Below are positions 6,736-43,033 of a stretch of 43,650 nt of DNA, in pieces. A model generated the notes under the pieces. The model searched no databases, had not been told where the DNA came from, and saw nothing but the letters and a program-made list of their open reading frames with translations. This DNA is from a virus. Both the position numbers and the translations under genes were made by a program. The stretch lies in IMG/VR virus record IMGVR_UViG_3300021963_008766, positions 1-43,650 of that record. The stretch is one strand, 5' to 3'. Positions within the stretch are counted from its first letter, which is position 1; each line of letters opens with the position of its first letter.

Positions 6736-7222
6736 AACCAATATAAAGAATGTCAAACCTAATGGCAGATATAAATCCGGAAAATTCGTTCCAAGGAACC
6801 CGGAGAAGTATATTGGTGATATCCACAACATAATTTATAGATCCTCTTGGGAGGGAAGATTTTGTATGTACTGCGACCAGAACCCAAACATCATAAAATG
6901 GGCATCGGAAGCAGTACAAATAGAATATTGGAATCCAATCGATAAAAAGACACACACGTACCATCCTGATTATTATATCAAGGTTCAAAAGAAAGATGGA
7001 ACGACAGAGGATTGGATCATCGAGATAAAGCCATCGGCCCAATACCAGTTAGATAAGAAGCCAGTATTAAAGGAGCCGATGACGGAAAAAAGAATTAGAT
7101 CACATAACGATCAAATGCAGACATGGATAGTTAACAGAGCTAAATTCGATGCTGCTATGAATTTTGCAAAGTACAACGGATATAGGTTTGGAGCGATTGA
7201 TGAAAATTTCATTTTTAGATAA
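6728..7222 (+). CDS. gp4: Head completion protein gp4-like, TnsA-type nuclease fold
   Basis: 164 aa. Close in pattern to T4 gp4 (gp50/gp4 head completion), which is needed to finish DNA-filled heads before tail joining. Seen: GKFVPRNPEKYIGD at residues 17-30, then IIYRSSWEGRFCMYCDQNP, HTYHPDYYIKV and WIIEIKPSAQ; the E...D...E-x-K residues are those of the TnsA/PD-(D/E)xK-like fold in this family. Length fits the family (about 150 aa). It overlaps gp55 and shares TAATG with the next gene, so the three genes are translationally coupled. Placement just before the portal fits a head-assembly block. Confidence 0.85.
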   Translation: MSKTNIKNVKPNGRYKSGKFVPRNPEKYIGDIHNIIYRSSWEGRFCMYCDQNPNIIKWASEAVQIEYWNPIDKKTHTYHPDYYIKVQKKDGTTEDWIIEIKPSAQYQLDKKPVLKEPMTEKRIRSHNDQMQTWIVNRAKFDAAMNFAKYNGYRFGAIDENFIFR

Positions 7223-7794
7223 TGGACTTCAAGATAGAGATAAGAAATGCCATAGAGAGTGCTGGATCCCCTGCAAAACTTGCGGAGGAGAGCTTTTTGC
7301 ATTACAGCAAAAATTACTCAGTTCTTAAGTCTTCCGATCCTATAAAAAGCTTAATACAAGGAAGAATCTACGCATTTTATTATGATTCCGAACTAAAAGC
7401 TGAAAAAGGATTTATAAACAGAAGACCTATAGTATTTTTAGAATCAAGGGAGATAACTCCAACTAAAAGCATAATTAGGGGGATAGATCTTATTCTTTTA
7501 ACCCCCAGAGACAGAACAAACTTTTTCATTAGATTGCATGCTATTTACGGAAAAATCATGGATCAGAACGAAAAAAAGGATAGATCTGCGCAGATGCCTT
7601 TAAAATTTGATTCAGAGATGTTAGAAACTTTAATGGGTGGTATCAAGTATAATCATGCATACACTGGCTATAAGATGGAAAAAATTAAGGGACTAAAAGA
7701 AATTGAGAGAGAAGAATGGAAGCATTTAGTTTACCTAAACACCAAATCTATAGAGGGGGCTGCTTTGAACGATATATATAACAAATATCAATAA
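7222..7794 (+). CDS. Conserved T4-like phage protein of unknown role
   Basis: 190 aa, not firmly recognised. It has a GRIYAFYYDSEL segment (about residues 48-59), then a short hydrophobic strand RPIVFLES and GIDLILL, a pattern I associate with small conserved proteins next to gp4/portal in marine T4-like phages. Its place between gp4 and gp20 suggests a head-completion, neck or baseplate protein. It shares the A of TAATG with genes on both sides, so it is part of the same coupled message. T4 gp53 or gp2 were considered by position, but no motif supports either. Confidence 0.6.
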   Translation: MDFKIEIRNAIESAGSPAKLAEESFLHYSKNYSVLKSSDPIKSLIQGRIYAFYYDSELKAEKGFINRRPIVFLESREITPTKSIIRGIDLILLTPRDRTNFFIRLHAIYGKIMDQNEKKDRSAQMPLKFDSEMLETLMGGIKYNHAYTGYKMEKIKGLKEIEREEWKHLVYLNTKSIEGAALNDIYNKYQ

Positions 7795-9413
7795 TGGCGG
7801 GATTTTTAGGCGATAATAGGAATAATCCATTTTTTAGCAACGTGCTAAACAACCTTAGAAAAATAGGGTCTTTCGGCATGAACTATGGAGATATGGTTGT
7901 GAAAAATTCCCAAGCAGTTGGTACAACTGAGGCAATGTTTCTTGCAAAGGGTGGGGTACAAGACGAGAATTTCCTATACTCCCTAAGAAAAGCAGATACA
8001 ACAGCCAAGCAGTACATAGCTTATTTTGATAGGGATTATATCAATAAAAAGACTTATCTTAGAAATTTTGCACTAAATCCGGAAATTGAATTCATTTTAG
8101 ATACTGTTTGTGACGAGGCAATCGTTTATGATGATAAGAATTTTTTCTCATATTTTGTTTCGACAGACATAAAAGGTGTTGGCGAGGAGATAGAAAATAA
8201 GATTCAAGACAGATATAAAGAAATTTACAATCTATTCGGGTTCAACGAGGGTATTTCAGCATGGCACTTTTTCAGAAACTTCCTAATAGACGGTATTTTA
8301 GCTTTTGAGATCATATTTGATTCAAGAGGTAAAAACGTGATTGGGTTTAAAGAATTAGATCCTGCTTCATTATTACCTTCGGTTGAAAAACAACTTGATG
8401 GTAATTTCGTTGAGTGTTGGATTCAGTATCCAGACAATCCTGCTTTATCTAGAAAATTGTACGATTCACAGATTATCTACATTTCTTATGCTAAGGGTAA
8501 CACAACAACGAGAATAAGCTATTCAGAAAGATTGATAAGATCTTTCAATCTTTTAAGAATCATGGAGCACACCAGAGTAATCTGGAACGTGATGAACTCT
8601 TCATTTAGAATGACGATGACGGTTCCTGTTGGAACTAAATCACCACAGAAAGCAAGACAATCTCTTGCTGAATTGATGAGTATCTACAAGGAAGATATCA
8701 GATTAGATCAAGACAGCGGAGAATTATTCGTTAACGGAAGACCTAATATACAATTCTTTAAGAATTATTTAATGCCTTCCACACCAAACGGAACCCCTGA
8801 TATAACACCATTAGCAGGAAGCGGGGACGCAACACCTTTTAGTGACTTGAAAGCATTGGCTTATTTTGCTGATAAACTTAAATTAGATTCTAAAATACCT
8901 TATTCAAGATTTGATAGGGAGGACAGGGGAACACAAGGAACATTCAGTGGCAACGCAGAAGGTCTGGATCAGGAAGAAATTAGATTCTTCAAGTTCATCA
9001 CAAGATTAAGATCCATATACCAAGACATTCTATTAAAACCATTATGGATTCAATTCTGTCTGGATTATCCAGAATACAAAAAAGACTTCATGGTTAAAAG
9101 CCAATTTGGTTTAGACTATGTTAAGGATAACTCTTTTGCAGAAATAAAATACATGGAGATTTTAAATGCAAGAAAAGATCAGGTAACTAAAATTGCAGGA
9201 TTATTAGATGCAGATGGCAAACCATACTTCTCTTTAAAATATGTTTTAGACAAGTATCTTGGTATGACTGATGATGATAAGATAGCTAATGAAAAAGCTA
9301 AAGCTGCTGCAGAGAAGAAGAAAAAAGAAGCTGCTGAAGCTGCTGCTGAAGCTGGCGGGGAAGAAGGAGCTGCTGGTGCAGAAGGAGATGCTGAAGAAGA
9401 ATTTAAACTTTAA
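7794..9413 (+). CDS. gp20: Portal protein gp20, copy A
   Basis: 539 aa, close to T4 gp20 (524 aa). The portal is the 12-subunit ring at the head vertex through which DNA is packaged and the tail joins. Seen: NPEIEFILDTVCDEAIVYDD (about 97-116), VIGFKELDPASLLPSVEK, LYDSQIIYISYAKGN, LIRSFNLLRIMEHTRVIWNV and the clip/stem region PVGTKSPQKARQSL, all in the order of the T4-like portal family. The end (about 500-539) is a low-complexity Ala/Glu/Lys tail not present in T4. The next gene is a second, colinear portal. TAATG overlap with the upstream gene. Confidence 0.93.
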   Translation: MAGFLGDNRNNPFFSNVLNNLRKIGSFGMNYGDMVVKNSQAVGTTEAMFLAKGGVQDENFLYSLRKADTTAKQYIAYFDRDYINKKTYLRNFALNPEIEFILDTVCDEAIVYDDKNFFSYFVSTDIKGVGEEIENKIQDRYKEIYNLFGFNEGISAWHFFRNFLIDGILAFEIIFDSRGKNVIGFKELDPASLLPSVEKQLDGNFVECWIQYPDNPALSRKLYDSQIIYISYAKGNTTTRISYSERLIRSFNLLRIMEHTRVIWNVMNSSFRMTMTVPVGTKSPQKARQSLAELMSIYKEDIRLDQDSGELFVNGRPNIQFFKNYLMPSTPNGTPDITPLAGSGDATPFSDLKALAYFADKLKLDSKIPYSRFDREDRGTQGTFSGNAEGLDQEEIRFFKFITRLRSIYQDILLKPLWIQFCLDYPEYKKDFMVKSQFGLDYVKDNSFAEIKYMEILNARKDQVTKIAGLLDADGKPYFSLKYVLDKYLGMTDDDKIANEKAKAAAEKKKKEAAEAAAEAGGEEGAAGAEGDAEEEFKL

Positions 9414-9416
9414 TAA

Positions 9417-11138
9417 ATGGCAGGATTCATAGACAATTTTTCACAGAACAACCCTAACATGGGGCGTATACTTCGTGCTGTGAGCAAAATCGGAAGCTTC
9501 GGAATGGAGTATAAGGATCTTGTTGTGAAGAATTCTCAAGCTATTGGTGTATCTGAAGCTATGATGAGACAAAGATTATCTTTAACAGATTCAGATGAGG
9601 ATTTCGTTTTTAGTTTAGCAGCAGCAGATACAACAAGTAGAAAGTATATTGCTTATTTTGATAAGGACTATCCATATAAAAGAGATTTCTTAAGAAGCTT
9701 TGCTCTTAATGCAGAGATTGAATGGATTCTTGATATACTTGCTGATGAAGCTATTGTTTATGATGACAGAAATTTCTGTTGCTCTCTTTCCTTAGTTAAT
9801 ATGGATCTAAAAGATGAAGTAGCAGACGCATTAAGAGAAAACTTCAGAAAGATCTACGTTTCACACGGATTCAATAATGGCATCTCAGCATGGCAGTATT
9901 TTAGACAATTCTTAATCGATGGATTTTTATCTTTTGAGATAGTTTATTCGGATGACGGAAAACAAATAGTTGGATTTAAAGAATTAGATCCAGTTTCTTT
10001 AACCCCTTCAGTTGAAAGAACACCAGGCGGGAAAACGGTTCAAATTTGGTATCAATATTATAATGATAGCGTAAGAGAAAGAAAATTATACGATTCGCAA
10101 GTGATCTATGTTTCTTTTGCTAACGGTAACAGCACAAGCAGAACAAGTTATGTTGAAAGATTAATCAGATCACATAATTTATTGAAGATCATGGAGCATA
10201 CCAGAATTATCTGGAATGTTATGAATGCTTCATTCCGTTTGAAGATGACAATACCAGTAGGATCAAGATCACCACAGAAGGCTAAAGAGACTTTAGGTGA
10301 ATTGATGACTATGTACAAAGAGGACATCAAGCTTAACACCGATTCTGGTGAATTGAGTATTAACGGTAGACCAAACTTACAATTCTACAAAAACTATCTT
10401 TTCCCAGTTCAGGGCGGGGAATCACCTAAGGTAGAAACAATTAATAATGCAGGACCAAATCTAAATGTGATAGATGCTGTTGTTTATTTCTTTAATAAAT
10501 TAAAAGCAGATTCTAAAATTCCATTTAACAGATTTGCTGCAAGATCCGGTGGTACAGTAGGTACTTATAAGATTGGTGCAGAATCTGCAGAAAGAGACGA
10601 GATCAGGTACAACAAGTTTATCAATAGAATCAGATCAATCTATCAAGAAATTCTTTTGAAGCCTTTATGGATTCAAATGACACTGGATTATCCAGAGCTT
10701 GATAGCGATCCTGTTTTTAGAACTCAGCTTGGACTTAAATTTAATTCTGACAATCAATTTGGTGAATCAAAAGAGATTGAACAATTAATTAAAAAGATTG
10801 ACTTTATAGCTGGACTTTCTGAGATCAAAGAAAAGAAAGGCGAAGAAGAATTACCTTACTTTAGTCAAGACTTCCTTATCGATAAATTCCTTGGATTAAC
10901 CAATGAAGATAGAAGGGTTAACAACATCTATAAAAAGAAGGAAGAGGAAGAAGGTAAAGAAGCTGCAAAAATGGAAGCATCAGCAGCTCCTGCTTCCGGA
11001 GGTGGCGAATCAGCTGCACCTGCCGCAGAAGCCGGCGCAGAGGAAGCAGCACCAGCAGCAGAAACTGAAGCAGCACCAGCAGAGCCAGCAGCTACCCCAG
11101 AACCTGCCCCAGCAGCGGAAGAGGCACCAGCCCCTTAA
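9417..11138 (+). CDS. gp20: Portal protein gp20, copy B (tandem paralogue)
   Basis: 573 aa and colinear with copy A along the whole core: both start MAGF, both have IGSFGM, VVKNSQA, DEAIVYDD, GFKELDP, LYDSQ, ERLIRS, IMEHTR, SPQKA and LLKPLWIQ. Differences cluster near residues 50-62, around the insertion-like loop at 335-355 and in the tails. Copy B ends in a long Ala/Pro/Glu tail (PAAEAGAEEAAPAAETE type) while copy A has a Lys/Ala/Glu tail. No frameshift is visible in either, so both look functional. Starting 3 nt after the copy A stop, it is surely co-expressed. Either a mixed ring or a specialised second ring is possible. Confidence 0.9.
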   Translation: MAGFIDNFSQNNPNMGRILRAVSKIGSFGMEYKDLVVKNSQAIGVSEAMMRQRLSLTDSDEDFVFSLAAADTTSRKYIAYFDKDYPYKRDFLRSFALNAEIEWILDILADEAIVYDDRNFCCSLSLVNMDLKDEVADALRENFRKIYVSHGFNNGISAWQYFRQFLIDGFLSFEIVYSDDGKQIVGFKELDPVSLTPSVERTPGGKTVQIWYQYYNDSVRERKLYDSQVIYVSFANGNSTSRTSYVERLIRSHNLLKIMEHTRIIWNVMNASFRLKMTIPVGSRSPQKAKETLGELMTMYKEDIKLNTDSGELSINGRPNLQFYKNYLFPVQGGESPKVETINNAGPNLNVIDAVVYFFNKLKADSKIPFNRFAARSGGTVGTYKIGAESAERDEIRYNKFINRIRSIYQEILLKPLWIQMTLDYPELDSDPVFRTQLGLKFNSDNQFGESKEIEQLIKKIDFIAGLSEIKEKKGEEELPYFSQDFLIDKFLGLTNEDRRVNNIYKKKEEEEGKEAAKMEASAAPASGGGESAAPAAEAGAEEAAPAAETEAAPAEPAATPEPAPAAEEAPAP

Positions 11139-15513: not shown

Positions 15514-17574
15514 ATGACAGAACTAACCGATTTAAACCTTCAATCCGTACTAAATTCACCGGATTATAGACTAACAACAGAATCTAATTTTCAACAGATT
15601 CAGCAGGCGATAGATTTATTGCAGACTGCTTTTGGGATCGAATTCGATCCTAACCCAACTATCAATTCGCAAAATGCGACATTTACACTTGACATATTAA
15701 AATCTAATAGTGTTAAGTTACCTGCTATTGGAGCAACAAAAATCAGCTTAGATGGAACAAATGGTGGCATTATAGGATCTTCCATAAACGTTTCTAAAAA
15801 TGCATTTATCGGTGGGGATCTTTTACTTTACAATGAAACCGGAAGCGATGGTAGAATCAAATTCAGCGTGGATAAGGTTAACGATCAAATTAAAACTCCG
15901 GAGGTAGGACAAATAAGATTCACAGGTAGTGCTTTTCAAGGATATGCTTTTCAGGACGAGGTTTCTTCTAAATTTTCATTTACTATAGGATCAACAGGAT
16001 CTGGAAATTTTACACTATCATACAACGGATCTTCTATTATAACTATACCTTGGCAAGGAACTGCATATCTAACAGCTAATAGAATAGTCTCTGCTGTAGC
16101 AGACATTTCAGATATAACCAATATATCAGGGCCAGCAATAAAAGCGTCATCTTCAATAGGCACGGTAACAATAGAATCATTACCAGGATTTGCTGATGCT
16201 ATGAACGGAGTTGCAGTTTCAATATCTGCATCAGGCATGACAATTACTCCATCATCTGGTAATATGTCTGATGGTATAGATGGAACAGCAAGATGGGTTA
16301 ATTTCTTTACTGGAGAATCAGGATCTACTGGAACTAGTGGATCCTCAGGATCATCTGGGGAAGAAGGACCATCAGGATCTTCAGGAACATCAGGGGGTAA
16401 CGGAACATCAGGAACATCAGGAACAAGAGGATCGTCAGGAACCTCCGGAGAATCTATACCAGGAACTTCTGGATCTGCTGGAACATCGGGATCCACGGGA
16501 ACTTCCGGATCTGCAGGAACCTCTGGACAAACCGGGACATCAGGTACATCTGGGACATCCAGTGATCAACCAGCGGGAATCTATTCAGCAATATCAACAA
16601 CTGTTTTATTTGTAGCTAACGGAAACAGAAGCATAATAACTACGCCAAATCTTCCATGGGTTGGTGGGGAAACCATAACACTTGTTGCTAAAGAAGACCC
16701 TTCCGCTACAATGACAGGAACTATCGCATCTTACACACAATCTAATGGATTGATGAATTTTCTTGCAACGTCCTCTACCGGAAGCGGAACATACGGGACT
16801 TGGTACATTGATATGTTACCGCTCGGGTCTAAAGGAATTTTAGTTGGATCAACATCGGATATATTGGCAACACCCTCTCCGGTTCCTGGAATGCTTGGAT
16901 ATTCTAGTACAGATAATGTAATGGCATTTTATAATGGAACAAATTGGATAAAGATCGCAGAGAATGGCATATTAACATCGCCATCTCCTACACCGACACC
17001 AACACCTGCTCCGACACCAGCGCCAACACCTGCTCCGACACCAGCACCACCAACACCGGAGCCACCAACACCTGCTCCGACACCAGCGCCAACACCTGCT
17101 CCGACACCAGCGCCAACACCTGCTCCGACACCTACACTTAGCGGTGCCCCTGGAGCTGTTTATACGGGGGATTGGTATTTCTATACAAGTGAAGGTGCAG
17201 TAACCCCTCCATTTACACCAGATAATGTTGGAGATATTATCTTTGCAATAGACCAAGGGGCAACATACGCAGCGACATATAACCCGAGCTTTTTCCAAAA
17301 CACTGAGGTGTATTTTAATATTGCTGATAGTTATGGCATGGATAAAACCACGGAATTAACTGGATTGAAAAATAATGGAGGATATTTATACTTATCCCAA
17401 CAAAATCAATACAGCAAATATCAATTTGATATTAACGATCTTAACATTTCAGGATCAACAGCTAGTTTCACGGTAAACAGCGGGTCAGCTAACGATGCAA
17501 CGATTGTTTTACAAACTGGAATCAGCTATAACAACTATGAACCGGTATTGATTTTTATAGAGGTTAATCCATAG
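15514..17574 (+). CDS. Collagen-like and proline-rich tail fibre protein
   Basis: 686 aa. An N-terminal helical/attachment region (1-60) is followed by beta-rich repeats (60-270). A collagen-like block (about 270-348, bases near 16320-16560) is rich in GTSGSSG triplets. A middle beta domain (about 350-485) precedes a proline hinge of PTPAP repeats (about 490-540), and a C-terminal beta domain begins [17 protein letters not shown]. The order attachment region, stalk, hinge and tip is typical of a phage fibre. The Ser/Thr density of the stalk and the Thr-Pro hinge resemble O-glycosylated mucin-like segments. Its own late promoter lies upstream. It is the third collagen-like fibre gene in the window. 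Confidence 0.75.
16981..17133 (+). repeat. Thr-Pro-Ala-Pro coding repeat (hinge)
   Basis: Tandem imperfect 12- and 24-bp units (acacctgctccgacaccagc type) encode PTPAPTPAP with one PPTPEPPTP interruption. The repeat is in frame and inside the fibre gene, so it is protein-coding, not a CRISPR or origin repeat. Confidence 0.85.
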
Positions 17575-25515: not shown

Positions 25516-27597
25516 ATGAGTCTTAATCCTGAATTCGTTTTAGTCTTGGAAAAATCTTCACACAACCTGAAGACCGAGAAGAATGGTAACGAATATTATC
25601 TTGAAGGTATAGCAGCAGTATTTGGAAAGGAGAACTCCAACCAAAGAATATATGAGGAAAGAGAATATCTTCCACATCTACAATACCTTAAAGAAAAGAT
25701 CGAACAAAAAAGATTAGTAGGTGAATTAGATCACCCTAAAGAGTTTGATGTTTCTTTAAAGAATATTTCACACCTAGTTGAAGAGCTTGCTTACAGTCAA
25801 GACGATAGAACCCTTAGAATTAAGGTTAGACTTTTAGACACACCAGCTGGTAAAATAGCTAAGTCTTTAGTTGATGCTGGTATTCCAGTTTCTATCTCAT
25901 CAAGAGCAGCAGGTAACGTAATGGAGAACAAAAAAGTGCAAATCAAGAAGATTTTCACATATGATCTAGTTGCTGATCCTGGATTTGAAAATGCCCAACT
26001 TGAAAGAGTGTATGAAAGCTTAGGTTATAACCTAGAAGAAAAGAGCATGGCAGAGTCTATTTTAAAGGGGCTTCCTTTAATGAACGAAAGCTTAGGATTA
26101 GAAAATGATTCAAATTTTAAGATATATAGAATCAAAGATCAAGATAAGATACAAAAGCTTCTAGATAAGGAGCCAAATAAGAGTTTAATCATGGAAAATA
26201 ATTTCGTTACAGCGGAAGAAATGAATGGATATTCTAAACTAATCAAAAAGGAAATGGACACTATTAAAGGGTCTATTGAATCATTGAAAGGGGTTAAAGA
26301 ATCTTCCAAAATAACAGAATCATCTTCTCTTGAGGAAAGAGTTGGTAAATTAGAAAAGTATGCTGATTATTTAGCAGAAAACCTAGAGGCATCTATCAAA
26401 TATGGTGAATACTTAGCTGAGAATCTAGAAGATTCAGTTTCCTATTCTAAGTATCTTGCAGAGAACCTAGACAAATCTATTTCTTATGCAAAATATCTTG
26501 CTGAGCACTTAGACCACAACATCTCTTATTCTGAATATATTGCAGAAAACGTTGACCACAATGTTACAGCAGTTAAAGGATTAACAGAGAAAGTTGATCA
26601 ATCTATCGCTTATGCAGAATATGTAGCTGAGAACGTAGACAAAAACATTAAGTATAGCGAATACCTTGCTGAGAACTTAGATAAGAACATTTCTTATTCT
26701 GAGTATCTTGCTGAGAACGTAGATAAGAACATTTCTTACTCTGAATACTTAGCAGAAAACCTAGACAAAGGTTTAGCTTATAGCGAATACTTAGCTGAGA
26801 AATTAGATAAGAACATTTCTTACTCTGAATACTTAGCAGAAAACCTAGACAAAGGTTTAGCTTATTCTGATTATCTTGGTGAGAACCTAGATAAGACAGT
26901 TCATTACAGCGAATACATTGCTGAAAAATTAGCTAACAACATTAGCTATGCAGAATACATCGCTGAATCTGTAAATGCAGCTTCTGGAACTGGAGAGGTA
27001 AAAGAAGCAATAACAAAAGCAATTTCTGAAAACACAAGAACTTCAGGATATGCAGGAGATTACACAGAGATCTCTTCTAAAATTGACAATTTATTGAACA
27101 CTGTCGGTAAACAAAAGACAGAAGAAATAGCAGAAAATAAGAACTATCCTTTCTTAAAGCTTATGGGCGAACAAGGACAAAGAGAATTCTTATCACTGCA
27201 TGAAGGCCAAAAACAAAAGGTCGCTAAATCCTTAAATGAAAGCAATTACTCATCCGAAAAAGAGGTAATTGAAATTATGGGTAAAGCTTTGGTTGAACAA
27301 AATCAATCCGGAGAAAAATTCCTAGATTTAATGCCAGAAAAATACAAAACTTCTTGGGAGAATATGAACGAGTCTCAAAAGGCTTCTATATTAGCTCAAA
27401 GCAAGTTTCATAAATTGGATACTCCTTACCAAATCCAGAATTTCTGGGCTACTAGAGGTATCGCAGTTACCAAGGCAAATATCGAAAGAATAGACGAATC
27501 CCAAAACCAAATAATCGCAGCTCCTCAGCCAAAGGCGGTTTCTAGAGAATATCTAGATAATCTTTCTGAAGCTTTAGAAGCTAGATTTAAAAAATAA
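25516..27597 (+). CDS. gp21: Prohead protease fused to scaffold (gp21-gp22-like)
   Basis: 693 aa. Residues about 1-170 match the T4 gp21/U9-type prohead serine protease: GIAAVFGKENSNQR, then LVGELDHP (catalytic-type H73), the next conserved stretch KISHL-like (NISHLVEEL) and GIPVSISSRAAGN (serine in the ISSR segment). T4 makes gp21 and the gp22 core scaffold from separate genes. Here the rest is a scaffold: a 14-residue repeat (about 281-487) and a C-terminal helical part with a short tail. Known role: cuts head proteins after an (L/I)-x-E-type site during maturation. The capsid gene follows 14 nt later. Confidence 0.85.
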   Translation: MSLNPEFVLVLEKSSHNLKTEKNGNEYYLEGIAAVFGKENSNQRIYEEREYLPHLQYLKEKIEQKRLVGELDHPKEFDVSLKNISHLVEELAYSQDDRTLRIKVRLLDTPAGKIAKSLVDAGIPVSISSRAAGNVMENKKVQIKKIFTYDLVADPGFENAQLERVYESLGYNLEEKSMAESILKGLPLMNESLGLENDSNFKIYRIKDQDKIQKLLDKEPNKSLIMENNFVTAEEMNGYSKLIKKEMDTIKGSIESLKGVKESSKITESSSLEERVGKLEKYADYLAENLEASIKYGEYLAENLEDSVSYSKYLAENLDKSISYAKYLAEHLDHNISYSEYIAENVDHNVTAVKGLTEKVDQSIAYAEYVAENVDKNIKYSEYLAENLDKNISYSEYLAENVDKNISYSEYLAENLDKGLAYSEYLAEKLDKNISYSEYLAENLDKGLAYSDYLGENLDKTVHYSEYIAEKLANNISYAEYIAESVNAASGTGEVKEAITKAISENTRTSGYAGDYTEISSKIDNLLNTVGKQKTEEIAENKNYPFLKLMGEQGQREFLSLHEGQKQKVAKSLNESNYSSEKEVIEIMGKALVEQNQSGEKFLDLMPEKYKTSWENMNESQKASILAQSKFHKLDTPYQIQNFWATRGIAVTKANIERIDESQNQIIAAPQPKAVSREYLDNLSEALEARFKK
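26356..26976 (+). repeat. 42-bp repeat encoding 14-residue coiled-coil units
   Basis: Fourteen full units and one partial follow the consensus SYSEYLAENLDKNI. Unit 6 (TAVKGLTEKVDQSI) is degenerate. Fourteen residues equal two heptads, so the repeat should form a long coiled coil; its length could set the scaffold or capsid size. Confidence 0.85.
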
Positions 27598-33718: not shown

Positions 33719-33747
33719 CATTTACTAGAAACTTTAGTACATTTGGG

Positions 33748-33756
33748 GATATAAAA
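33748..33756 (+). promoter_or_regulatory. Putative late promoter variant (GATATAAAA)
   Basis: GGGGATATAAAA lies just before the ATG at 33767; the core is GATATAAA rather than GATATATA, closer to T4 TATAAATA. Confidence 0.45.
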
Positions 33757-33766
33757 TATAAATTTT

Positions 33767-34306
33767 ATGTCCCTTTTTGTTATAGAAGGAGCCAGAAAGT
33801 CGGGAAAAACATTTTTTATTAATTCCCAAAACTGGATCCCAGTATTCAAGTTCGATTTTAATGGACTGTACACTTCTTTAGATCTTCCCGCAGAAGGTGA
33901 GAAGACACACCACCTAGGATTGGGTAAAGAACTAATGGTTCAACAATTGAACAGAGATGGGTTTCTCCCTCATCTTATAATGGATAGAGGGGTTATAACC
34001 AATTCCGTATGGGGAGTATTAAATAACAGGGTAAAATTAAGATCAGTACTAGACGAGCTCGATTACATGCTAGAGAAAGATCTTTTTAGAAATACTATAT
34101 TCTTTCATATTAAGGGTACTTCCCCAGAGAAAAGAGAAAAGGATGTGTGGGATTACATGGACGAAAAAATACCACAGGAGACAGAGCTATTCGAACAGCT
34201 ATTTGATTACATCGAAAATGGCGGGGTTAAGATCTTTAGAATAGAGAATAAATTTGATGCTGAATCTCTAGCATCATTTCAAACTATAATTAAGAATTTA
34301 AAATAA
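33767..34306 (+). CDS. P-loop nucleotide/deoxynucleotide kinase-like protein
   Basis: 179 aa. P-loop GARKSGKT at residues 8-15 and a DRGVITNSVWG segment at about 73-83, which resembles the DRx motif of thymidylate/deoxynucleoside kinases. A charged lid region follows (KGTSPEKREKDVWDY), as in that fold. The phosphate acceptor cannot be told: thymidylate, another deoxynucleotide, or a small molecule. It is coupled by TAATG to the AsnB-like gene, so it may supply that pathway. Confidence 0.65.
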   Translation: MSLFVIEGARKSGKTFFINSQNWIPVFKFDFNGLYTSLDLPAEGEKTHHLGLGKELMVQQLNRDGFLPHLIMDRGVITNSVWGVLNNRVKLRSVLDELDYMLEKDLFRNTIFFHIKGTSPEKREKDVWDYMDEKIPQETELFEQLFDYIENGGVKIFRIENKFDAESLASFQTIIKNLK

Positions 34307-35739
34307 TGTGTGGAATCCTAATTGCTCATAATCCTTCACAAGCAAGGATTAATTCTATTGCTCACAGAGGGATAGAATTTTCTACCCACTCTGATGCTTC
34401 TGGTTTAACCCTATGCCACCACAGGCTACCTATCCAAACAGCGGTTGGCGATGGATGGATTCAGCCGGTTGAAATAGCAAAGGATAAGTATCTTTTATTC
34501 AACGGGGAAATTTTTAATTATCCCACAGAATTATATGACTCTGATACGGCATATCTAGCTAGTCTTTTTTCAACTTGCCTAGACTTTTCATCGGTTGAAA
34601 TGTTTAGCGCTTTGTATGAGCCACATATTAAGAGCTGGGACGGTTTTTGGGCTATTTGTCTGGTTGACATGAAAGCTAAGAGTGTTATTTGCTTCACTGA
34701 TCCATTAGGAAAGAAATGCCTATATTATAACGACCTAGGTGAAATCTGCTCAGAAATGAAGGGTCTTATCAATGGAAACTCATTTTTGGATTCATCCTTT
34801 ATGGGAGGTGTGAGAAAATGGGGATATGTTCCCAATGAATCCACACCATTTGAGAATATCCAAAAGATCAAACCAAATTACTTTTATCAATGGAATTTTG
34901 CTGCTCCTGATTTTAAGAAAACGTACGGCCCTTATTTCTCATTTAAACCACCCAAATTTGAGTTTAATTCTGAAGATGAGTTACTAGATTGGACATGGAA
35001 TAAAATTGAAGCAGCGACAAAGAATAGGCTGTTAAGCTTAGACTATCCGATATCCATACTACTCTCTGGCGGATTGGACTCCTCTATCATAGGGGGATTA
35101 CTCCTTAAGCTGGGTGCAGATGTCAGCTGGTATACCATAAACAATGGACCGGACAATGATTACGTTAGGGAATGTGAGAAGTACTGGGACGTCAAGGTAA
35201 ATCAGTTGGAATACACAATGGATGAAAGTAGCATGAATCTGGATGAGCTATATTTCAAATGGAATGAATCTCCCATTGATTTAGGAAGCGTGGTACCACA
35301 ATACCTTTTATTTGATGCTATCAAGAAAGGCACAGATACCCGCATAGTTTTATCCGGGGATGGTGCAGACGAAATGTTCGGGGGTTATAGAAGAATAGAC
35401 GAGTACGATTCTCAGGGATCTGATGTTTTCCACGAATTAACATACTATCATTTACCAAGACTTGATAAAATGAGTATGGCTCACACATTAGAACTTAGAA
35501 ATCCTTTTTTAAATCTGGAATTACTACAGATGGCTTTAAATCTTCCAATGGAATTAAGAAAGCATAAAACAATTCTCAAAAAGACCTTTAGAGGATTAGT
35601 ACCAGATTCTGTTATAGATCGTAAAAAACACCCACTTAAAAATGAAAAAATAGTGAAAGATCCAATGGAATATAGGATTGAAGCTATTGAAAGATTTAAA
35701 AAGGGATACGTAGAATTTTTAGAAAAAGGAAGCTATTAA
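34306..35739 (+). CDS. asnB: Asparagine synthetase B-like glutamine amidotransferase
   Basis: 477 aa. N-terminal nucleophile Cys2 (MCGILIAHN), HHRLPIQ and NGEIFNYPTEL match class II glutamine amidotransferases; the PP-loop SGGLDSS (254-260) and SGDGADEMFGGYRR match the AsnB synthetase half. Bacterial AsnB is about 550 aa, so this is shorter but complete in its key sites. The reaction would be ATP-dependent transfer of ammonia to a carboxylate (asparagine, or a different acid, as in peptide- or sugar-modifying relatives). It meets the minus-strand ATP-grasp gene tail to tail with 4 nt overlap and no terminator. Confidence 0.92.
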   Translation: MCGILIAHNPSQARINSIAHRGIEFSTHSDASGLTLCHHRLPIQTAVGDGWIQPVEIAKDKYLLFNGEIFNYPTELYDSDTAYLASLFSTCLDFSSVEMFSALYEPHIKSWDGFWAICLVDMKAKSVICFTDPLGKKCLYYNDLGEICSEMKGLINGNSFLDSSFMGGVRKWGYVPNESTPFENIQKIKPNYFYQWNFAAPDFKKTYGPYFSFKPPKFEFNSEDELLDWTWNKIEAATKNRLLSLDYPISILLSGGLDSSIIGGLLLKLGADVSWYTINNGPDNDYVRECEKYWDVKVNQLEYTMDESSMNLDELYFKWNESPIDLGSVVPQYLLFDAIKKGTDTRIVLSGDGADEMFGGYRRIDEYDSQGSDVFHELTYYHLPRLDKMSMAHTLELRNPFLNLELLQMALNLPMELRKHKTILKKTFRGLVPDSVIDRKKHPLKNEKIVKDPMEYRIEAIERFKKGYVEFLEKGSY

Positions 35740-37226
35740 TAAAGCTCTATTCCAGCTAGGGGTTCACCCTTAGCATTAAGTGGAGAATAATCTTCAGGCT
35801 CATCAGTTAATAGGAAGGTTTTACTTGCGTCTACCACTAAACCAGCTATTTCCATAAATCCTCTATTGATAAGCATTGGTGTGCTTTTGTTTGTTCTATC
35901 AACAACAGAGAATTTCACTTTTTTATAAACCATCTTCCCAAATTCTATGTCTAGTAGAATAACTGGTCTTTTATCGGTTTGATCTCCAACTTCTGCGTGA
36001 GAATATTCCATTATTCGATTACTGAATGATTTACCACCAACTGTCCAGTTTAAAAATCCATCCGAAGATTCTTCAGAAGAATCTGCATGAAGAGAACATG
36101 CAATAGCACCATTTCCAGTATCCAATTTTCCAATGAATTTACCGATGCCTTTGACGTCAAAGATTTCTCTGAATCCTACCATTTTTCTAGGATAGTTCCA
36201 GTTCTTTTTGTTTAAAATGAATTCTAGAATGATTCCGGTCACATCCAGTCCTGTTGCTTGTTCGATACCATCTGTTCCTGGTGATGCATTCACCTCTAGA
36301 ACGTACGGTACGCCACTATTTTTACCTATGATAATATCTACACCACACCAAGAGCATTCAGTCGCTTTAGCAGCTCCTATTGCGATTTTTTCTATTTCTT
36401 TTGGAATTTCCACTGCTTCTGCTATTCCCCCCAATGAAACGTTGGTTCTGAAGTCATTCTCTACTCTGTTTCTTTTCATGGAAGCTATGATAGTGTAATT
36501 ATCACCATCGCCAGTGGAGTTTCTGCTTCCAACAACATGTATTCTTAAATCGTAATCAGCTTCTATCTTCTCTTGAACTATTAATTCAGTTTCTGGAGAA
36601 AGCTTCCACATTGTTTGAAGTGTGGATATAAGGGATTCTTTAGAATCTATCTGAAATACGCCGATACCTTTGGTTCCGCTTAGTGTCTTAACAACAACTG
36701 GATATTTGCCGCCAACTTTATTGATAGCGTTTTCTATATCATCCTCTGAAGATATTAAAGCAGTCTTAGGGGTTGGTATTCCTTTTTCCTGAAGCTTTTG
36801 GACTGTGTCCAGTTTATCCTCGCAAAGAAGAACTGCTTTAGGGGAATTAACAGACACGAATCCCAGGGATTCTAATTTCTCAAAGAATTTTACTGCTGCA
36901 GTGGAATTTATAGAAGACCTTCTAGCAAGGACAACTGCATTTTTAATGTCAATCTCATGCTTTATTTGACTTCCCTTGTTTCTAATAAAGAAGCTTCCGG
37001 ACTCTGTTTTTTCTATTTCACCTTGGGAGGTGTTGATGATTATACATTTAAATCCCAGAGAACTAGATTTCTCCATCATTTTTTTAACAGTCGGTGCAAG
37101 TGTATTTTTCTTGGACTCCAACTTGGTTGTTAAAATAATAAGGGAAATTGGCTTTTTAAATCCAGCCTTTGGTTTTCCAGCCCCCTGAAAAACAAAATCC
37201 TCTTGTTCGGTCAATAAATTATCCAT
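35736..37226 (-). CDS. RimK-type ATP-grasp ligase fused to retropepsin-like protease domain
   Basis: 496 aa. Residues about 25-345 are a RimK-like ATP-grasp: the VVKTLSGTKGIGV ATP-binding loop (about 178-190), KIEADYDLRIHVVG, and the metal site YVLEVNASPG (308-317). Known relatives add glutamates to protein ends. Residues about 350-496 match the RimB/DUF785 retropepsin-like domain: FIGKLDTGNGAIACSLHA (DTGN at 369-372, where DTGA is usual), then ADRP-like PVILLDIEFG and MLINRGFMEI. In bacteria RimK and RimB are usually two proteins. Fusion here gives ligase and trimmer in one chain. A GGGGATATATAG motif precedes the start. Confidence 0.88.
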   Translation of the reverse strand: MDNLLTEQEDFVFQGAGKPKAGFKKPISLIILTTKLESKKNTLAPTVKKMMEKSSSLGFKCIIINTSQGEIEKTESGSFFIRNKGSQIKHEIDIKNAVVLARRSSINSTAAVKFFEKLESLGFVSVNSPKAVLLCEDKLDTVQKLQEKGIPTPKTALISSEDDIENAINKVGGKYPVVVKTLSGTKGIGVFQIDSKESLISTLQTMWKLSPETELIVQEKIEADYDLRIHVVGSRNSTGDGDNYTIIASMKRNRVENDFRTNVSLGGIAEAVEIPKEIEKIAIGAAKATECSWCGVDIIIGKNSGVPYVLEVNASPGTDGIEQATGLDVTGIILEFILNKKNWNYPRKMVGFREIFDVKGIGKFIGKLDTGNGAIACSLHADSSEESSDGFLNWTVGGKSFSNRIMEYSHAEVGDQTDKRPVILLDIEFGKMVYKKVKFSVVDRTNKSTPMLINRGFMEIAGLVVDASKTFLLTDEPEDYSPLNAKGEPLAGIELY

Positions 37227-37242
37227 CTAAAACTTAGTTGAT

Positions 37243-37254
37243 CTATATATCCCC
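37243..37254 (-). promoter_or_regulatory. Putative late promoter (minus strand)
   Basis: GGGGATATATAG on the minus strand, 17 nt before the ATP-grasp start at 37226. Confidence 0.55.
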
Positions 37255-37263
37255 AATAAATAA

Positions 37264-37291
37264 AAAAGGAGATCTTATGGGATCTCCTTTT
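37264..37291 (-). terminator. Intrinsic terminator after the Glu-rich gene
   Basis: AAAAGGAGATC pairs exactly with GATCTCCTTTT around a 6-nt loop. Read on the minus strand it is followed by TTTTTTATT. It separates the Glu-rich gene from the ATP-grasp gene, which then has its own promoter. Confidence 0.75.
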
Positions 37292-37315
37292 GGATATTTT
37301 CTTTGAAATTAATGA

Positions 37316-37903
37316 TTAATTAAAAAATCTGTTAAAAGCAGGGTTTAGGATCTCTTCTGATTCTTCTTCCTCGTGATCTTCCTCAGTCATTTCGTCCTCT
37401 TCGTGTTCTTCTTCATGACCACCCATATCTTCGTCTTCGTCATCTTCTTCGTTAACGCCTTCTTCATCTTCAAGATCTTCTTCTTGATTATACTCGTCTA
37501 GGTCGATTTCTTCCTCTTCCATATCTTCCTCTTCGTCAACTTCTTCTTCATTGTATTCAGAATCTTCTTCGTCCATGGCTTCTTCGTCATCTTCCTCGTT
37601 AACGTTTTCTTCCATGTCTTCTTCATATTCTTCTTCCTCTTCTTCTTCCTCTTCCATATCATCTTCGGCTTCAACTTCTGAATCGTCTTCCATGTCAAAT
37701 GATGAATCCATACCGTCAGTTTCTTCGTTTTCGTCTTCCATTTCTTCGTCAGCAGGGATAGAGTCTGCACCTCCGTCGGTTTCAGTCTCCTCTTGGTCTA
37801 CAGTATCTGCAGTGTCCATATCCATTTCTGTATTGTCTTGTCCAAGTGTTCCTTCAGCGTATTGTTTAGAAAACTCCTCAAAACTTAAGATCTTTTTTTC
37901 CAT
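37316..37903 (-). CDS. Extremely acidic (Glu/Asp-rich) protein
   Basis: 195 aa, more than half acidic in the middle. Residues 1-18 (MEKKILSFEEFSKQYAEG) form a CTS-like N-terminus. The rest is low-complexity Glu/Asp with Met, and the last ten residues are LNPAFNRFFN. No domain is recognised. Such proteins may mimic DNA, bind basic proteins, or act as a packaged filler. Its place just upstream of a RimK-type glutamate ligase on the same strand suggests it could be the substrate, since the ligase adds glutamate to protein ends; this is a guess. Own promoter (37921-37930) and terminator. Confidence 0.65.
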   Translation of the reverse strand: MEKKILSFEEFSKQYAEGTLGQDNTEMDMDTADTVDQEETETDGGADSIPADEEMEDENEETDGMDSSFDMEDDSEVEAEDDMEEEEEEEEEYEEDMEENVNEEDDEEAMDEEDSEYNEEEVDEEEDMEEEEIDLDEYNQEEDLEDEEGVNEEDDEDEDMGGHEEEHEEDEMTEEDHEEEESEEILNPAFNRFFN

Positions 37904-37949: not shown

Positions 37950-38216
37950 TTACTCCCCTGGTGCTGCAGGATGCTCTCCCATGTTAGCAGCTCTTCCGGA
38001 TTCGGTTGCTCCGTATCCTGGGTAATCTATTTTAGATTGGTGTTTAAACACCGAATCCCCATATCCAACATACTCATAAGGCTTCTCAAGCTTAATCTCA
38101 TGAAATGGGGATCTATCCTCTTTACTTAAGTTCTTTGGATTCCAAGGATCTGCTATAACCTTTAAGAAGTCTTTAAACTCTAAGATTTCTCTCTTTTTTA
38201 CGTTTTTTTGATGCAT
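37950..38216 (-). CDS. Small hypothetical protein, 88 aa
   Basis: Starts MHQKNVKKREILEFKDFLK, with an LEFKDFL stretch of the CTS-like type, then a Pro/Tyr/Gly-rich end (YGDSVFKHQSKIDYPGYGA, EHPAAPGE). No family is recognised. It follows the 230-aa gene by 15 nt with no GATATATA of its own, so it is probably the second gene of that message. Confidence 0.5.
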   Translation of the reverse strand: MHQKNVKKREILEFKDFLKVIADPWNPKNLSKEDRSPFHEIKLEKPYEYVGYGDSVFKHQSKIDYPGYGATESGRAANMGEHPAAPGE

Positions 38217-38231: not shown

Positions 38232-38924
38232 TTATCCTAGTCCTAAAAGACTTAATATTCCACCTCCTGTACCACCTTCGGTTCCTGTTTCTGAGGACTT
38301 AGCTGCTTTAGCTAGATCCTTCTCTGAAAATTTTCCTCCTCCAAATATATCTTTAAATGAGGTACCTTCTCCGCAAACTACTCCTTCTAGTTTACCTTCT
38401 AGCATATTTATAAAGTCTGTTGAGTTGATATAATTAGTTAAAGCCTCTCTTGTTGAAGCAACGAATGTTCCTCCTAGTCCAGACTCAAAGTTGATGTTAA
38501 TGCCCAATCCTCTAGAAAGAATTGCCGAAATAGCTTTTTCTTCTAGGGTTTCAAGTAATCCCTTTGATATTGCATCTGTCCAATATTTACAAGATCCTGC
38601 CCCGAAATAGCTTCCTATTTGAGTGAATGAAATGTTTTCCACTATGTTTTTAGCAAATTCACTCATAAATCCACCATCATTAGGTAAACCTAGTTTATCT
38701 AATAGCCATCCTGCAGCATAGTTTTTTAATCTATCTTCGAATCCACCAAGTAGTTTAACCCCTAATCCGCTAATTAAATCTGAAATACCTTCGTTTATTT
38801 GATCTTTAGATTCACCTTTCTGTAACATGTCATTATAGTGTGCCTCTAAGCCCTCCACTATTCTGAAGTATTCTTCGTCAGTGATTTTAACCTTGCTGAA
38901 TTCTGAATATTTGATGACTTTCAT
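38232..38924 (-). CDS. Glycine-rich hypothetical protein with CTS-like N-terminus
   Basis: 230 aa from the ATG at 38924. The longer frame (start 39083) is rejected because a late-promoter motif (38941-38950) lies inside it and the N-terminus MKVIKYSEFSKVKI then fits the CTS-like set. The body is Gly/Leu-rich with amphipathic helices (ISDLISGLGVKLLGGFEDRL, KNYAAGWLLDKLGL) and a Gly-rich end (GTGGGILSLLGLG). The helices could be membrane-active, or it may be a packaged internal protein; neither is shown. Family unknown. Confidence 0.6.
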   Translation of the reverse strand: MKVIKYSEFSKVKITDEEYFRIVEGLEAHYNDMLQKGESKDQINEGISDLISGLGVKLLGGFEDRLKNYAAGWLLDKLGLPNDGGFMSEFAKNIVENISFTQIGSYFGAGSCKYWTDAISKGLLETLEEKAISAILSRGLGININFESGLGGTFVASTREALTNYINSTDFINMLEGKLEGVVCGEGTSFKDIFGGGKFSEKDLAKAAKSSETGTEGGTGGGILSLLGLG

Positions 38925-40436: not shown

Positions 40437-41021
40437 ATGAGCCCCTTTCTAGTAATAGCTTACTACACCTTAGGAAACCAATACGAATCTCTCTCGGAAA
40501 ATCTTAAAAAATCTTGCAAGGATTTTAATCTCCCCTTGTTTTTAAAGCCTATAGAAAATCTAGGTTCTTGGTCTAAGAACACACACTATAAAGCAAACTT
40601 TATTCAGGAGTGTCTTAGAAGATTTTCACAAAACTTAGTTTATGTTGATGTTGATGCAGTCTTTAGAAGCTATCCAAGTCTTTTCGAAGATCTAGAATGC
40701 GATATAGCATATAGGACAGAAAACTTCAAGTGGAGATCCAACGAGGCATTAAGTGGTACTATCTTTCTTAATAATAACGACAAGATAAAAGCTTTCGTTC
40801 AAACTTGGATAGAGATGAACGATAAAACTCCAGCAGTTAAGCTTAAGCCAGAAACCTGGGAACAAGCTAACATGCAAAGAGCATTATCTGAAAGCAAGGA
40901 ATTGGAGTATTATAATCTACCGCCAGAGTACACTTACATATTTGATCATACTAAAAGACTGTATCCTGATATACCCCCAGTTATAGAGCATTTTCAGGCT
41001 TCTAGAAAGGCTGATATATAA
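40437..41021 (+). CDS. GT-A-type glycosyltransferase-like protein, paralogue A
   Basis: 194 aa. The DxD motif (NLVYVDVDAVFRSYPSLFED, about residues 66-85) and the EALSGTIFLNN segment resemble nucleotide-diphospho-sugar transferases (the family including PF03407-type proteins). GSWSKNTHYKANFI parallels the second gene. Length is close to a bare catalytic domain. Starts at ATG 40437 with no SD. A GATATATA promoter for the next gene overlaps its stop. Substrate and acceptor unknown. Confidence 0.7.
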   Translation: MSPFLVIAYYTLGNQYESLSENLKKSCKDFNLPLFLKPIENLGSWSKNTHYKANFIQECLRRFSQNLVYVDVDAVFRSYPSLFEDLECDIAYRTENFKWRSNEALSGTIFLNNNDKIKAFVQTWIEMNDKTPAVKLKPETWEQANMQRALSESKELEYYNLPPEYTYIFDHTKRLYPDIPPVIEHFQASRKADI

Positions 41022-41023
41022 AA
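41013..41023 (+). promoter_or_regulatory. Putative late promoter overlapping a stop codon
   Basis: GATATATAAAA; the last codons of the previous gene (GAT-ATA-TAA) form the motif. About 22 nt before the ATG at 41043. Confidence 0.5.
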
Positions 41024-41042
41024 AACAAAGAACCTTAATGTT

Positions 41043-42188
41043 ATGTCGTTGAAAAAAATAAGGAGATTGAGAAATCCATTTAACACTGTCTTTGGAAATA
41101 TCCCAGAAGTTCCTCAAAAAGAAGATAGTGAATATATGAAAAATCCACCTAAACCGCCCTCAAATGATTCTGATCTTCTGGATGAAATGCTTCCCCTAAT
41201 AGTTAGCTTCTATGCTGATTTTGAGAATAATAAATACTATGAAGGATTTGCAAAGGATCTTATTAAAAAATGTAGAGAGTTTGGGGTTTCATATGATATC
41301 TCTGAGGCCGAATCTAGAGGAAGTTATTCTGCAAATTGCTTAATGAAGCCAGAGTTTATCCTGGATAAATTGAAGGAGCACAAAAGACCCATACTCTGGA
41401 TGGACTGCGACACCCAGTTTAGGCTACCATTCAGTGATTTTAATAATGTGGAATCCGATATAGGAATGGCTACACACAGCGGTAACATGGAGGGTATAAA
41501 AGCATCACCTTTATACTTTAACTACACAGAGGGTGCATTCAGAATTATAAGAGAATGGGTAGTTCATTGCAGGGCTTGCTATACTAAAGGAATTATTGAA
41601 CTCGATCATGATGCTCTTAAGCATTATGTACTTAGGGTTTTATCTGGAAATTATAGTGCTTTTTTACTTAGTGAAAATTGGAACGACTTTGTTCAGGGTA
41701 AGTATATTAACAACGGAAATTCAAGGGTAACCGGAAAACAACAGGTACATCGCCAAGTAGGTGTAGATGATTCTATCAGGGAGAAATACAGTCAGGATGT
41801 CAAAAGATATAAATTATTCTTTGAAGACAATTCTGAAAGTTCATTTGAATCTGCTTTACAATTTCTGGGTACATTCTCGGGATACTCCAGGGTGGAGTTT
41901 ATATTCGATGTGTCTTTGGAAAAAATGGCTAAAACACCGGCGTTTGAAAAATTAAATATAGAAAGTGGCGGTTCGGTGTATTTCTCTAATCAAGACTTTG
42001 ATTCAACTTTCACTAGTCCCAATAGGATATCTCTAGGAATAGAGGGGGTTAATGGGATTGAAAAAGACTGGGATCTAAAAATAGAGAAAGAAATTGAATC
42101 CGGAAATAATCCATTACATTCCCTAAATTTCTATGATAGTGGCTTAGGAAAGATAAGAATAAAAACAAAAGGAAAAATATGGATTTAA
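41043..42188 (+). CDS. GT-A-type glycosyltransferase-like protein, paralogue B with extra C-terminal domain
   Basis: 381 aa. After a basic N-terminus, residues about 95-180 carry RGSYSANCLMKPEFI and PILWMDCDTQFRLPFSDF, the DxD-type site that lines up with paralogue A (YVDVDAVFRSYP). About residues 250-381 add a domain of unknown type with beta pattern (RVEFIFDVSLEKMAKTP, GGSVYFSNQDF). It probably makes or caps a glycan with its neighbours. It overlaps the fucosyltransferase-like gene by 10 nt. Confidence 0.68.
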   Translation: MSLKKIRRLRNPFNTVFGNIPEVPQKEDSEYMKNPPKPPSNDSDLLDEMLPLIVSFYADFENNKYYEGFAKDLIKKCREFGVSYDISEAESRGSYSANCLMKPEFILDKLKEHKRPILWMDCDTQFRLPFSDFNNVESDIGMATHSGNMEGIKASPLYFNYTEGAFRIIREWVVHCRACYTKGIIELDHDALKHYVLRVLSGNYSAFLLSENWNDFVQGKYINNGNSRVTGKQQVHRQVGVDDSIREKYSQDVKRYKLFFEDNSESSFESALQFLGTFSGYSRVEFIFDVSLEKMAKTPAFEKLNIESGGSVYFSNQDFDSTFTSPNRISLGIEGVNGIEKDWDLKIEKEIESGNNPLHSLNFYDSGLGKIRIKTKGKIWI

Positions 42189-43033
42189 TTAAGGGCATGG
42201 GATTACCATTCCCACCAGAGTTTTCTTCGTGTTCTAATCTTTCCCCTAAGTTGTTTAACTGGACGACAGAAGACGCAGAAGCTATTATTTATATAGATGA
42301 CAAAATATTAGACGGATTACAGACCCCAAGAAACGATTTTAAGTTTGGATGGCTTTGTGAGTCTAGAGAAATATCCATTAATATATTCGATACCATATCT
42401 CAAAACCCACAAAGGTTTAAAAACAAATATGCTGGAATATTTACCTGCGACTACGAGCTATTAAACTCCGATGATTTTTTTATTTATGCACCTCCTGGAT
42501 CAAATCTTCCCTGGACAAAACCCGAAGAGATGGGAATCTATGAAAAAAGTAAAATATGTTCTATGATTTCATCTGCCAAATCTAGAACATATGGACATCA
42601 TAAAAGATTAGAGGTTGCTGGTTTATTAAAGGATAGAATAGATTTATTTGGGGGTGCACACGGATCTCCTAAAATAGGTGAAGGATCCGGACCAAATCAA
42701 GATTGGTGGAGATCCAAACTGCCAGCAATAAAAGATTATATGTTTTCTATAACTTTTGAGAATGCAGTGTATGACAAGTATTACACCGAAAAGATAACAG
42801 ACTGTTTCGCAACAGGAACTATCCCGGTTTATTGGGGAACTAAAAAAGTGATTGAAGATTTTAATCAGGACGGAATAATATTCTTTGACGATATTAAAAA
42901 TGATATTGGAATATTATCAGAGGATTTATACAAATCAAAAATGTCTGCAATCCTGGATAATCTAAACAGAGTTAAGGTGTTAGAATCTGCAGATGACATC
43001 ATTTACAAAAAAATTAAATCATGCACAAAATAA
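42179..43033 (+). CDS. GT10 fucosyltransferase-like protein
   Basis: 284 aa. The GT10 signature runs at about 188-220: MFSITFENAVYDKYYTEK then DCFATGTIPVYWG, matching the family form (FxLxFENs...YvTEK...GtvPVyxG). Upstream, KICSMISSAKSRTYGH and RLEVAGLLKDRIDLFGGA match the donor-site pattern. Known GT10 enzymes add fucose with alpha-1,3/1,4 linkage from GDP-fucose; the sugar may differ here. Fused to its neighbours by overlaps on both sides. Confidence 0.8.
   Translation: MDLIKGMGLPFPPEFSSCSNLSPKLFNWTTEDAEAIIYIDDKILDGLQTPRNDFKFGWLCESREISINIFDTISQNPQRFKNKYAGIFTCDYELLNSDDFFIYAPPGSNLPWTKPEEMGIYEKSKICSMISSAKSRTYGHHKRLEVAGLLKDRIDLFGGAHGSPKIGEGSGPNQDWWRSKLPAIKDYMFSITFENAVYDKYYTEKITDCFATGTIPVYWGTKKVIEDFNQDGIIFFDDIKNDIGILSEDLYKSKMSAILDNLNRVKVLESADDIIYKKIKSCTK

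What the first reader, a model, noticed from the sequence alone, without database searches (positions are those of the whole stretch)
33767..37903. Ligase-protease, amidotransferase, kinase and poly-Glu protein: a possible protein-modification module
Side by side are a P-loop kinase-like protein, an AsnB-like amidotransferase, a RimK-type ATP-grasp fused to a RimB-like retropepsin domain, and a protein that is mostly Glu/Asp. RimK relatives add glutamate to protein ends and RimB-type domains trim it, so a poly-Glu protein next door is a natural substrate or guide. The AsnB-like enzyme could amidate the product. Grouping these in a phage head module would be new as far as I know. The link between them is inference.
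Basis: partly seen in the sequence, partly recalled or inferred. Interest (0 to 1): 0.8.

Follow-up and report, generated by a model that had tools for sequence, protein, structure and literature searches.

The report
Phage glutamate-adding and glutamate-trimming fusion enzyme
A large phage carries a two-headed enzyme that should add glutamates to proteins and cut them off again; most of its relatives carry a signal for being packed into the phage head, so this family may ride inside the virus and rewrite a host protein at infection, but the idea that all four neighbouring genes form one machine does not hold.

Summary
All four genes are real and conserved in about 20 related phage contigs. 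The fusion (35736-37226, minus strand) is a RimK-family alpha-L-glutamate ligase (above NCBI's cut-off) with a C-terminal RimB-like retropepsin domain. Catalytic motifs of both domains are invariant in 33 relatives.

Four results change the interpretation. (1) RimK-DUF785 fusions in phages were reported in 2008. (2) Outside the window's clade, 23 of 30 distinct fusions start with a T4-type capsid-targeting peptide (0.5% of internal windows do), and virion proteomics of phage YerA41 lists a protein that is, by gene order, its homologue. I read the family as packed, injected modifiers, like T4 Alt; the target is untested and ribosomal protein S6 is the default guess. (3) The four genes are two units: kinase-AsnB, and fusion plus acidic protein. 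In a sister phage the two units lie far apart. (4) The acidic protein is conserved in acidity and end motifs, not in Glu runs, so 'poly-Glu substrate' is weak. A small neighbour (37950-38216) keeps a C-terminal Glu in 16 of 18 members and is another candidate acceptor.

The window's own fusion lacks the canonical targeting peptide, so packaging here is inferred.

The parts
35736..37226 (-). RimK-type ATP-grasp ligase fused to a C-terminal RimB-like retropepsin (496 aa)
   Evidence: TIGR00768 171 bits against cut-off 143; PDB profile RimK 1e-52, retropepsin-like 9g59 8e-12; AF2 model with RimK as top Foldseek hits
36207..37139 (-). ATP-grasp (RimK) part, residues about 30-340; K138, K180, D297, E311, N313 invariant in 33 sequences
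35802..36194 (-). retropepsin part, residues about 345-475; D369-T370-G371-N372 (36111-36122) invariant in 33 sequences
37316..37903 (-). acidic protein, 195 aa, 54% Asp+Glu; conserved ends LSFEEFSK...FNRFFN
37950..38216 (-). small conserved protein (88 aa) with FxxF near the N-terminus and a C-terminal Glu in 16 of 18 clade members; candidate ligase acceptor
38232..38924 (-). conserved protein with a capsid-targeting-like start (MKVIKYSEFS); the listed ORF begins at 39083 but relatives start here
37264..37291 (-). terminator-like hairpin between the acidic gene and the fusion gene (found on both strands)
33767..34306 (+). P-loop protein (Walker A GARKSGKT, DRG, KDxWD motifs), weakly thymidylate-kinase-like; paired with AsnB, a separate unit
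34306..35739 (+). AsnB-type amidotransferase (Cys2, NGE, SGGLDSS, GDGADE invariant in 6 sequences); paired with the P-loop gene

Best explanation
The fusion belongs to a widespread phage family of RimK ligases with a RimB-like trimming domain. Shown: both domains, their invariant catalytic motifs, and a T4-type capsid-targeting peptide on most relatives outside the window's clade. Inferred: the enzyme is built into the prohead, packed and injected, and then adds glutamates to the C-terminus of a host protein, the retropepsin domain resetting tail length; S6 is the default target by homology. In the window's clade the gene sits next to head genes, lacks the canonical peptide and stays beside an acidic protein with targeting-like motifs at both ends. 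That protein is probably an internal head protein that could carry the enzyme in (inferred). Kinase-AsnB is a separate unit that happens to sit next to it.
For: RimK subfamily score above cut-off; PDB profile and structure matches for both domains; catalytic motifs invariant in 33 sequences. Capsid-targeting motif in the first 25 residues: strict form 15 of 39 distinct family members (15 of 30 outside the window's clade), loose form 23 of 39 (23 of 30), against 0.13% and 0.5% of internal windows of the same proteins. In T4 IPIII residues 4 and 7 target and 8 and 10 govern processing (PMC9026906). In clade 2 the gene is usually three genes after the major capsid gene; in cyanophage S-RIM32 a RimK gene lies four genes after gp23. 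YerA41: 'Ribosomal protein modification protein' g112 is listed as particle-associated by LC-MS/MS (PMC7354516); by gene order after the ribonucleotide reductase genes it is the fusion's homologue, deposited as 'structural protein'. Acidic protein goes with the fusion: 17 loci both present, 19 both absent, none discordant at the kinase-AsnB locus. A S77-type prohead protease is encoded in the window.
Against: The window's own fusion and its clade lack the canonical targeting peptide. YerA41's homologue lacks it too, and its presence in particles could be contamination. S6 as target rests on homology only. The retropepsin match is below Pfam's own cut-off for the single sequence. The 17/19 co-occurrence reflects few evolutionary events and counts the locus, not the genome: L184's phage has the fusion elsewhere. 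Other ORFs in these phages carry the motif too (strict 81 of 841, loose 126 of 841), though some of those are themselves likely head proteins.
Confidence: 0.42

Rival explanations
1. The fusion is made after infection and modifies the host ribosome from inside the cell, without being packaged; its place near head genes has no functional meaning.
For: Monier et al. 2008 proposed translation takeover for phage RimK (PMC2530865). In Mosig, Melnitz, L049-L056 and L063-L082 the gene lies among replication-type or unassigned genes, not head genes. YerA41 g112 is a middle gene.
Against: Targeting peptides on most relatives, also on many of those among replication genes; YerA41 particle proteomics.
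Confidence: 0.25
2. The enzyme acts on phage head proteins during assembly: the retropepsin part cuts the acidic core protein at its Glu runs, or the ligase part extends the C-terminal Glu of the small protein 37950-38216.
For: RimB cuts internal runs of Glu: an 8-Glu linker is cut, and tails need 6 or more contiguous Glu, or 5 if the first is the encoded terminal Glu (PMC11957791). The window's acidic protein has a run of 9. The small protein ends in Glu in 16 of 18 members with the fusion at the locus against 2 of 14 without it, despite tail indels. All three neighbouring protein families carry FxxF starts.
Against: Glu runs are not enriched over composition and some members have none above 4. 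In L184's phage the fusion exists and the small protein does not end in Glu. The C-terminal Glu pattern is one clade, so not independent.
Confidence: 0.17
3. One reading: kinase, AsnB, fusion and acidic protein form one protein-modification pathway in which the product is glutamylated, trimmed and amidated.
For: Conserved side by side in about 20 contigs of one clade.
Against: Convergent strands and a terminator-like hairpin; kinase-AsnB alone at the same locus in a sister lineage and in other settings; the two units far apart on one contig in L051's phage; AsnB not detected in 14 of 15 other records with the fusion, though some are fragments.
Confidence: 0.08

Closest known systems
Phage RimK with C-terminal DUF785/PF05618 (Monier, Claverie and Ogata 2008, PMC2530865)
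   Same: Same domain order, phage contigs with T4-like genes
   Different: Targeting peptides, the acidic partner and virion proteomics were not mentioned in the passages I read (only search passages were read)
Bacterial RimABK and RimBK (Pseudomonas; Desulfotalea RimBK, PMC11957791)
   Same: Glutamate ligase plus retropepsin trimming domain, once in a single chain
   Different: RimBK has the protease at the N-terminus; here it is C-terminal, as in Halobacteria according to PMC2530865; RimA not looked for
T4 Alt and internal proteins IPI-IPIII
   Same: Capsid-targeting propeptide cut by the prohead protease, matched by most relatives; Alt is an injected protein-modifying enzyme
   Different: Different chemistry and no sequence kinship claimed; canonical peptide missing in the window's clade
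N-acetylglutaminylglutamine amide genes (NCBIfam TIGR03103/TIGR03104)
   Same: An ATP-grasp enzyme and an AsnB-type amidotransferase
   Different: Scores far below both cut-offs, no GNAT domain found, and here the two genes are separable

Membership tests
RimK family alpha-L-glutamate ligase | Family score above NCBI's curated cut-off (TIGR00768) | tested here: met
   171.3 bits against 143.4
RimK family alpha-L-glutamate ligase | ATP-grasp ATP/metal residues conserved | tested here: met
   K138, K180, D297, E311, N313 invariant in 33 sequences; roles assigned by position from knowledge of ATP-grasp enzymes
RimK family alpha-L-glutamate ligase | Adds Glu to the C-terminus of S6 | not testable with these tools
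   the S6-ligase equivalog model (NF007764) is not reached: 129 against 331 bits
RimB-like retropepsin | Retropepsin / PF05618 fold | tested here: met
   Family profile hits 9g59, 9g58, 2pma over the whole domain; phage zinc-protease models at 1.7-1.8 A
RimB-like retropepsin | Catalytic Asp in D-T-G | tested here: met
   D369-T-G invariant in 33 sequences; followed by N
RimB-like retropepsin | Cuts runs of Glu | not testable with these tools
   needs an enzyme assay
T4-type packaged internal protein | Capsid-targeting peptide FxxF[IL]xE at the N-terminus | tested here: not met
   Not in the window's fusion or its clade (0 of 9); met in 23 of 30 other distinct relatives with the loose form
T4-type packaged internal protein | Present in virions | tested here: inconclusive
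   A homologue (by gene order) is in YerA41 particles; nothing known for this phage
Asparagine synthase (glutamine-hydrolysing) | Equivalog score TIGR01536 | tested here: not met
   215 against 267 bits; Pfam domains met, so AsnB-like, substrate unknown
P-loop nucleotide kinase | Match to a kinase family | tested here: inconclusive
   Weak thymidylate-kinase matches in 4 of 18 relatives; model too poor

The most novel reading that the evidence does not exclude
Phages of several lineages pack a glutamate ligase-protease into the head and inject it. In the window's clade the enzyme has given up its own targeting peptide and is carried by a highly acidic protein with targeting motifs at both ends, which may also be its protease substrate, while a small head protein keeps a C-terminal Glu as ligase acceptor.
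Probability: 0.2. Interest if true: 0.78.

Novelty: new variant of a known kind. Interest (0 to 1): 0.55.

Why it matters
If the family is packaged, protein glutamylation would join ADP-ribosylation (T4 Alt) as a chemistry that phages bring into the cell ready-made, acting before any phage gene is read. It would explain why RimK genes recur in distantly related large phages and sit near head genes in several. It also gives a direct test in cultured phages (YerA41, Mosig, Melnitz), where virions and infected ribosomes can be examined by mass spectrometry.

Tried and rejected
Single four-gene operon: rejected on strand, terminator-like hairpin and scattered loci. Glu runs as selected RimB sites: shuffling each acidic protein gives the same number of runs of 6 or more (12 observed, 12.9 expected); only the window and its closest kin show longer runs than chance (P about 0.01, not independent). 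Fusion order as phage-specific: rejected, because PMC2530865 reports C-terminal DUF785 in Halobacteria. C-terminal Glu of the small protein as proof of a ligase acceptor: not upheld, because L184's phage has the fusion elsewhere and its small protein ends differently. Kinase identity: Pfam, NCBIfam, PDB profile and AF2 gave nothing firm. AsnB and kinase against 50,697 annotated phages: no match. Cyanophage RimK starts (S-RIM8, S-RIM32): no targeting peptide and too short for a retropepsin domain. Iyer et al. 2009 on amidoligases (PMC3268129) could not be read here.

Full report
The window comes from a large myovirus-like phage of the huge-phage kind: its major capsid protein is closest to a 462 kb uncultured phage and the Lak phages (44% and 40%), and it carries a S77-type prohead protease. 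The host is unknown; the Prevotella, Tenacibaculum and Chryseobacterium phages among the capsid relatives suggest Bacteroidota (inference).

The four reported ORFs are real. They are conserved at roughly 37-94% identity in about 20 IMG/VR contigs. In this clade the order is capsid gene, several head-region genes, P-loop gene, AsnB, then on the other strand fusion, acidic protein, 88-aa protein, 38232 protein. In L005 and L007 the last three are inverted as a block while the fusion stays.

The fusion. NCBIfam places it in the RimK family above the curated cut-off. A profile of 33 sequences hits RimK structures at 1e-52 and, with its C-terminal part, retropepsin-like 'ATP-dependent zinc protease' structures at 8e-12. 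AlphaFold2 gives a mostly confident two-domain model whose low-confidence first 23 residues precede the RimK core, with RimK as top PDB match. The ATP-grasp residues and D-T-G are invariant, so both activities are likely kept. Such fusions in phage contigs were described in 2008 (PMC2530865); bacterial RimBK has the reverse order, and its protease is active on glutamylated S6 (PMC11957791).

Packaging. Start peptides of the relatives look like T4 capsid-targeting sequences, e.g. MKPVKFNEYITEE, MKNRLAYFNEFVINEA, MMNLKYFSDFVNEA. The strict motif occurs in 15 of 39 distinct family members and the loose one in 23, against 0.13% and 0.5% of internal windows of the same proteins; with the strict motif the AsnB, P-loop, clamp-loader and exonuclease families score none. 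All positives lie outside the window's clade (23 of 30 there; 0 of 9 inside). On a tree the peptide is present in deep branches and missing from the window's clade, which is monophyletic; loss there is the simpler reading. YerA41 lists a 'ribosomal protein modification protein' among particle proteins, and its position after the ribonucleotide reductase genes fits the fusion's homologue; I did not see the supplementary table. That homologue has no canonical peptide.

Two units, not one. P-loop and AsnB genes are adjacent in the loci where both are found, including lineages where the fusion is not at that locus. In the phage of L051 the head module reads P-loop, AsnB, 38232-like, 37950-like without the fusion. 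There the fusion and an acidic protein lie about 96 kb away on the linear contig (17 kb if circular), in a region that seems to hold replication genes. The acidic protein there ends in RVMRFEDF, resembling the RVIRFDNF of the window's clade. So fusion plus acidic protein looks like the older association, and its meeting with P-loop and AsnB in the window's clade is probably secondary.

The acidic protein. Across the clade Asp+Glu ranges from 43 to 81%, while the two ends are kept (LSFEEFSK at the start; RFDNFF or NPAFNRFFN at the end). All but one of 19 have the FxxF half of a targeting motif near the start; the exception is probably L020, which looks like a shortened copy. It fits an internal head protein. 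RimB cuts contiguous Glu runs, and the window's protein has one of nine, but runs are not enriched family-wide, so a role as protease substrate is possible, not indicated.

The 88-aa protein keeps a C-terminal Glu in 16 of 18 members in the window's clade, despite insertions and deletions in the tail, against 2 of 14 in loci without the fusion and 7.8% background. This is a lead for a ligase acceptor, weakened by common descent and by L184.

Verdict: the enzyme is a real member of a known phage family; its likely packaging is the new point, supported by relatives and not by the window's own sequence; the larger module idea is not supported.

Noticed in passing
33745-33774 (+): A 13-pair hairpin followed by T's overlaps the start codon of the P-loop gene; it could be a terminator or a start-masking hairpin.
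   Followed up: no
L102-L115, L049-L056, window 37316-37345: A C-terminal motif like RFDNF, RFEDFI or RLEDF ends both the acidic proteins and the 37950-like proteins of sister phages, resembling the N-terminal capsid-targeting motif placed at the other end.
   Followed up: partly
25516-27597: The prohead protease is followed in the same ORF by a long repeat region (YSEYLAENLDKNI...).
   Followed up: no
7794-9413 and 9417-11138: Two adjacent portal-like ORFs with similar starts.
   Followed up: no
253-1305, 2795-3613, 15514-17574: Three proteins with long GTSGSSG-type repeats.
   Followed up: no
6728-7222: A TnsA-like endonuclease (PF08722, 1e-15) just upstream of the portal genes, present also in a 462 kb phage at 41%.
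   Followed up: no
L036, L042, L052: Two RimK-type genes in tandem, the second without a DTG motif.
   Followed up: no
40437-43033: Three glycosyltransferase-like genes in a row (PF03407 hit, no Pfam hit, PF00852 hit).
   Followed up: no
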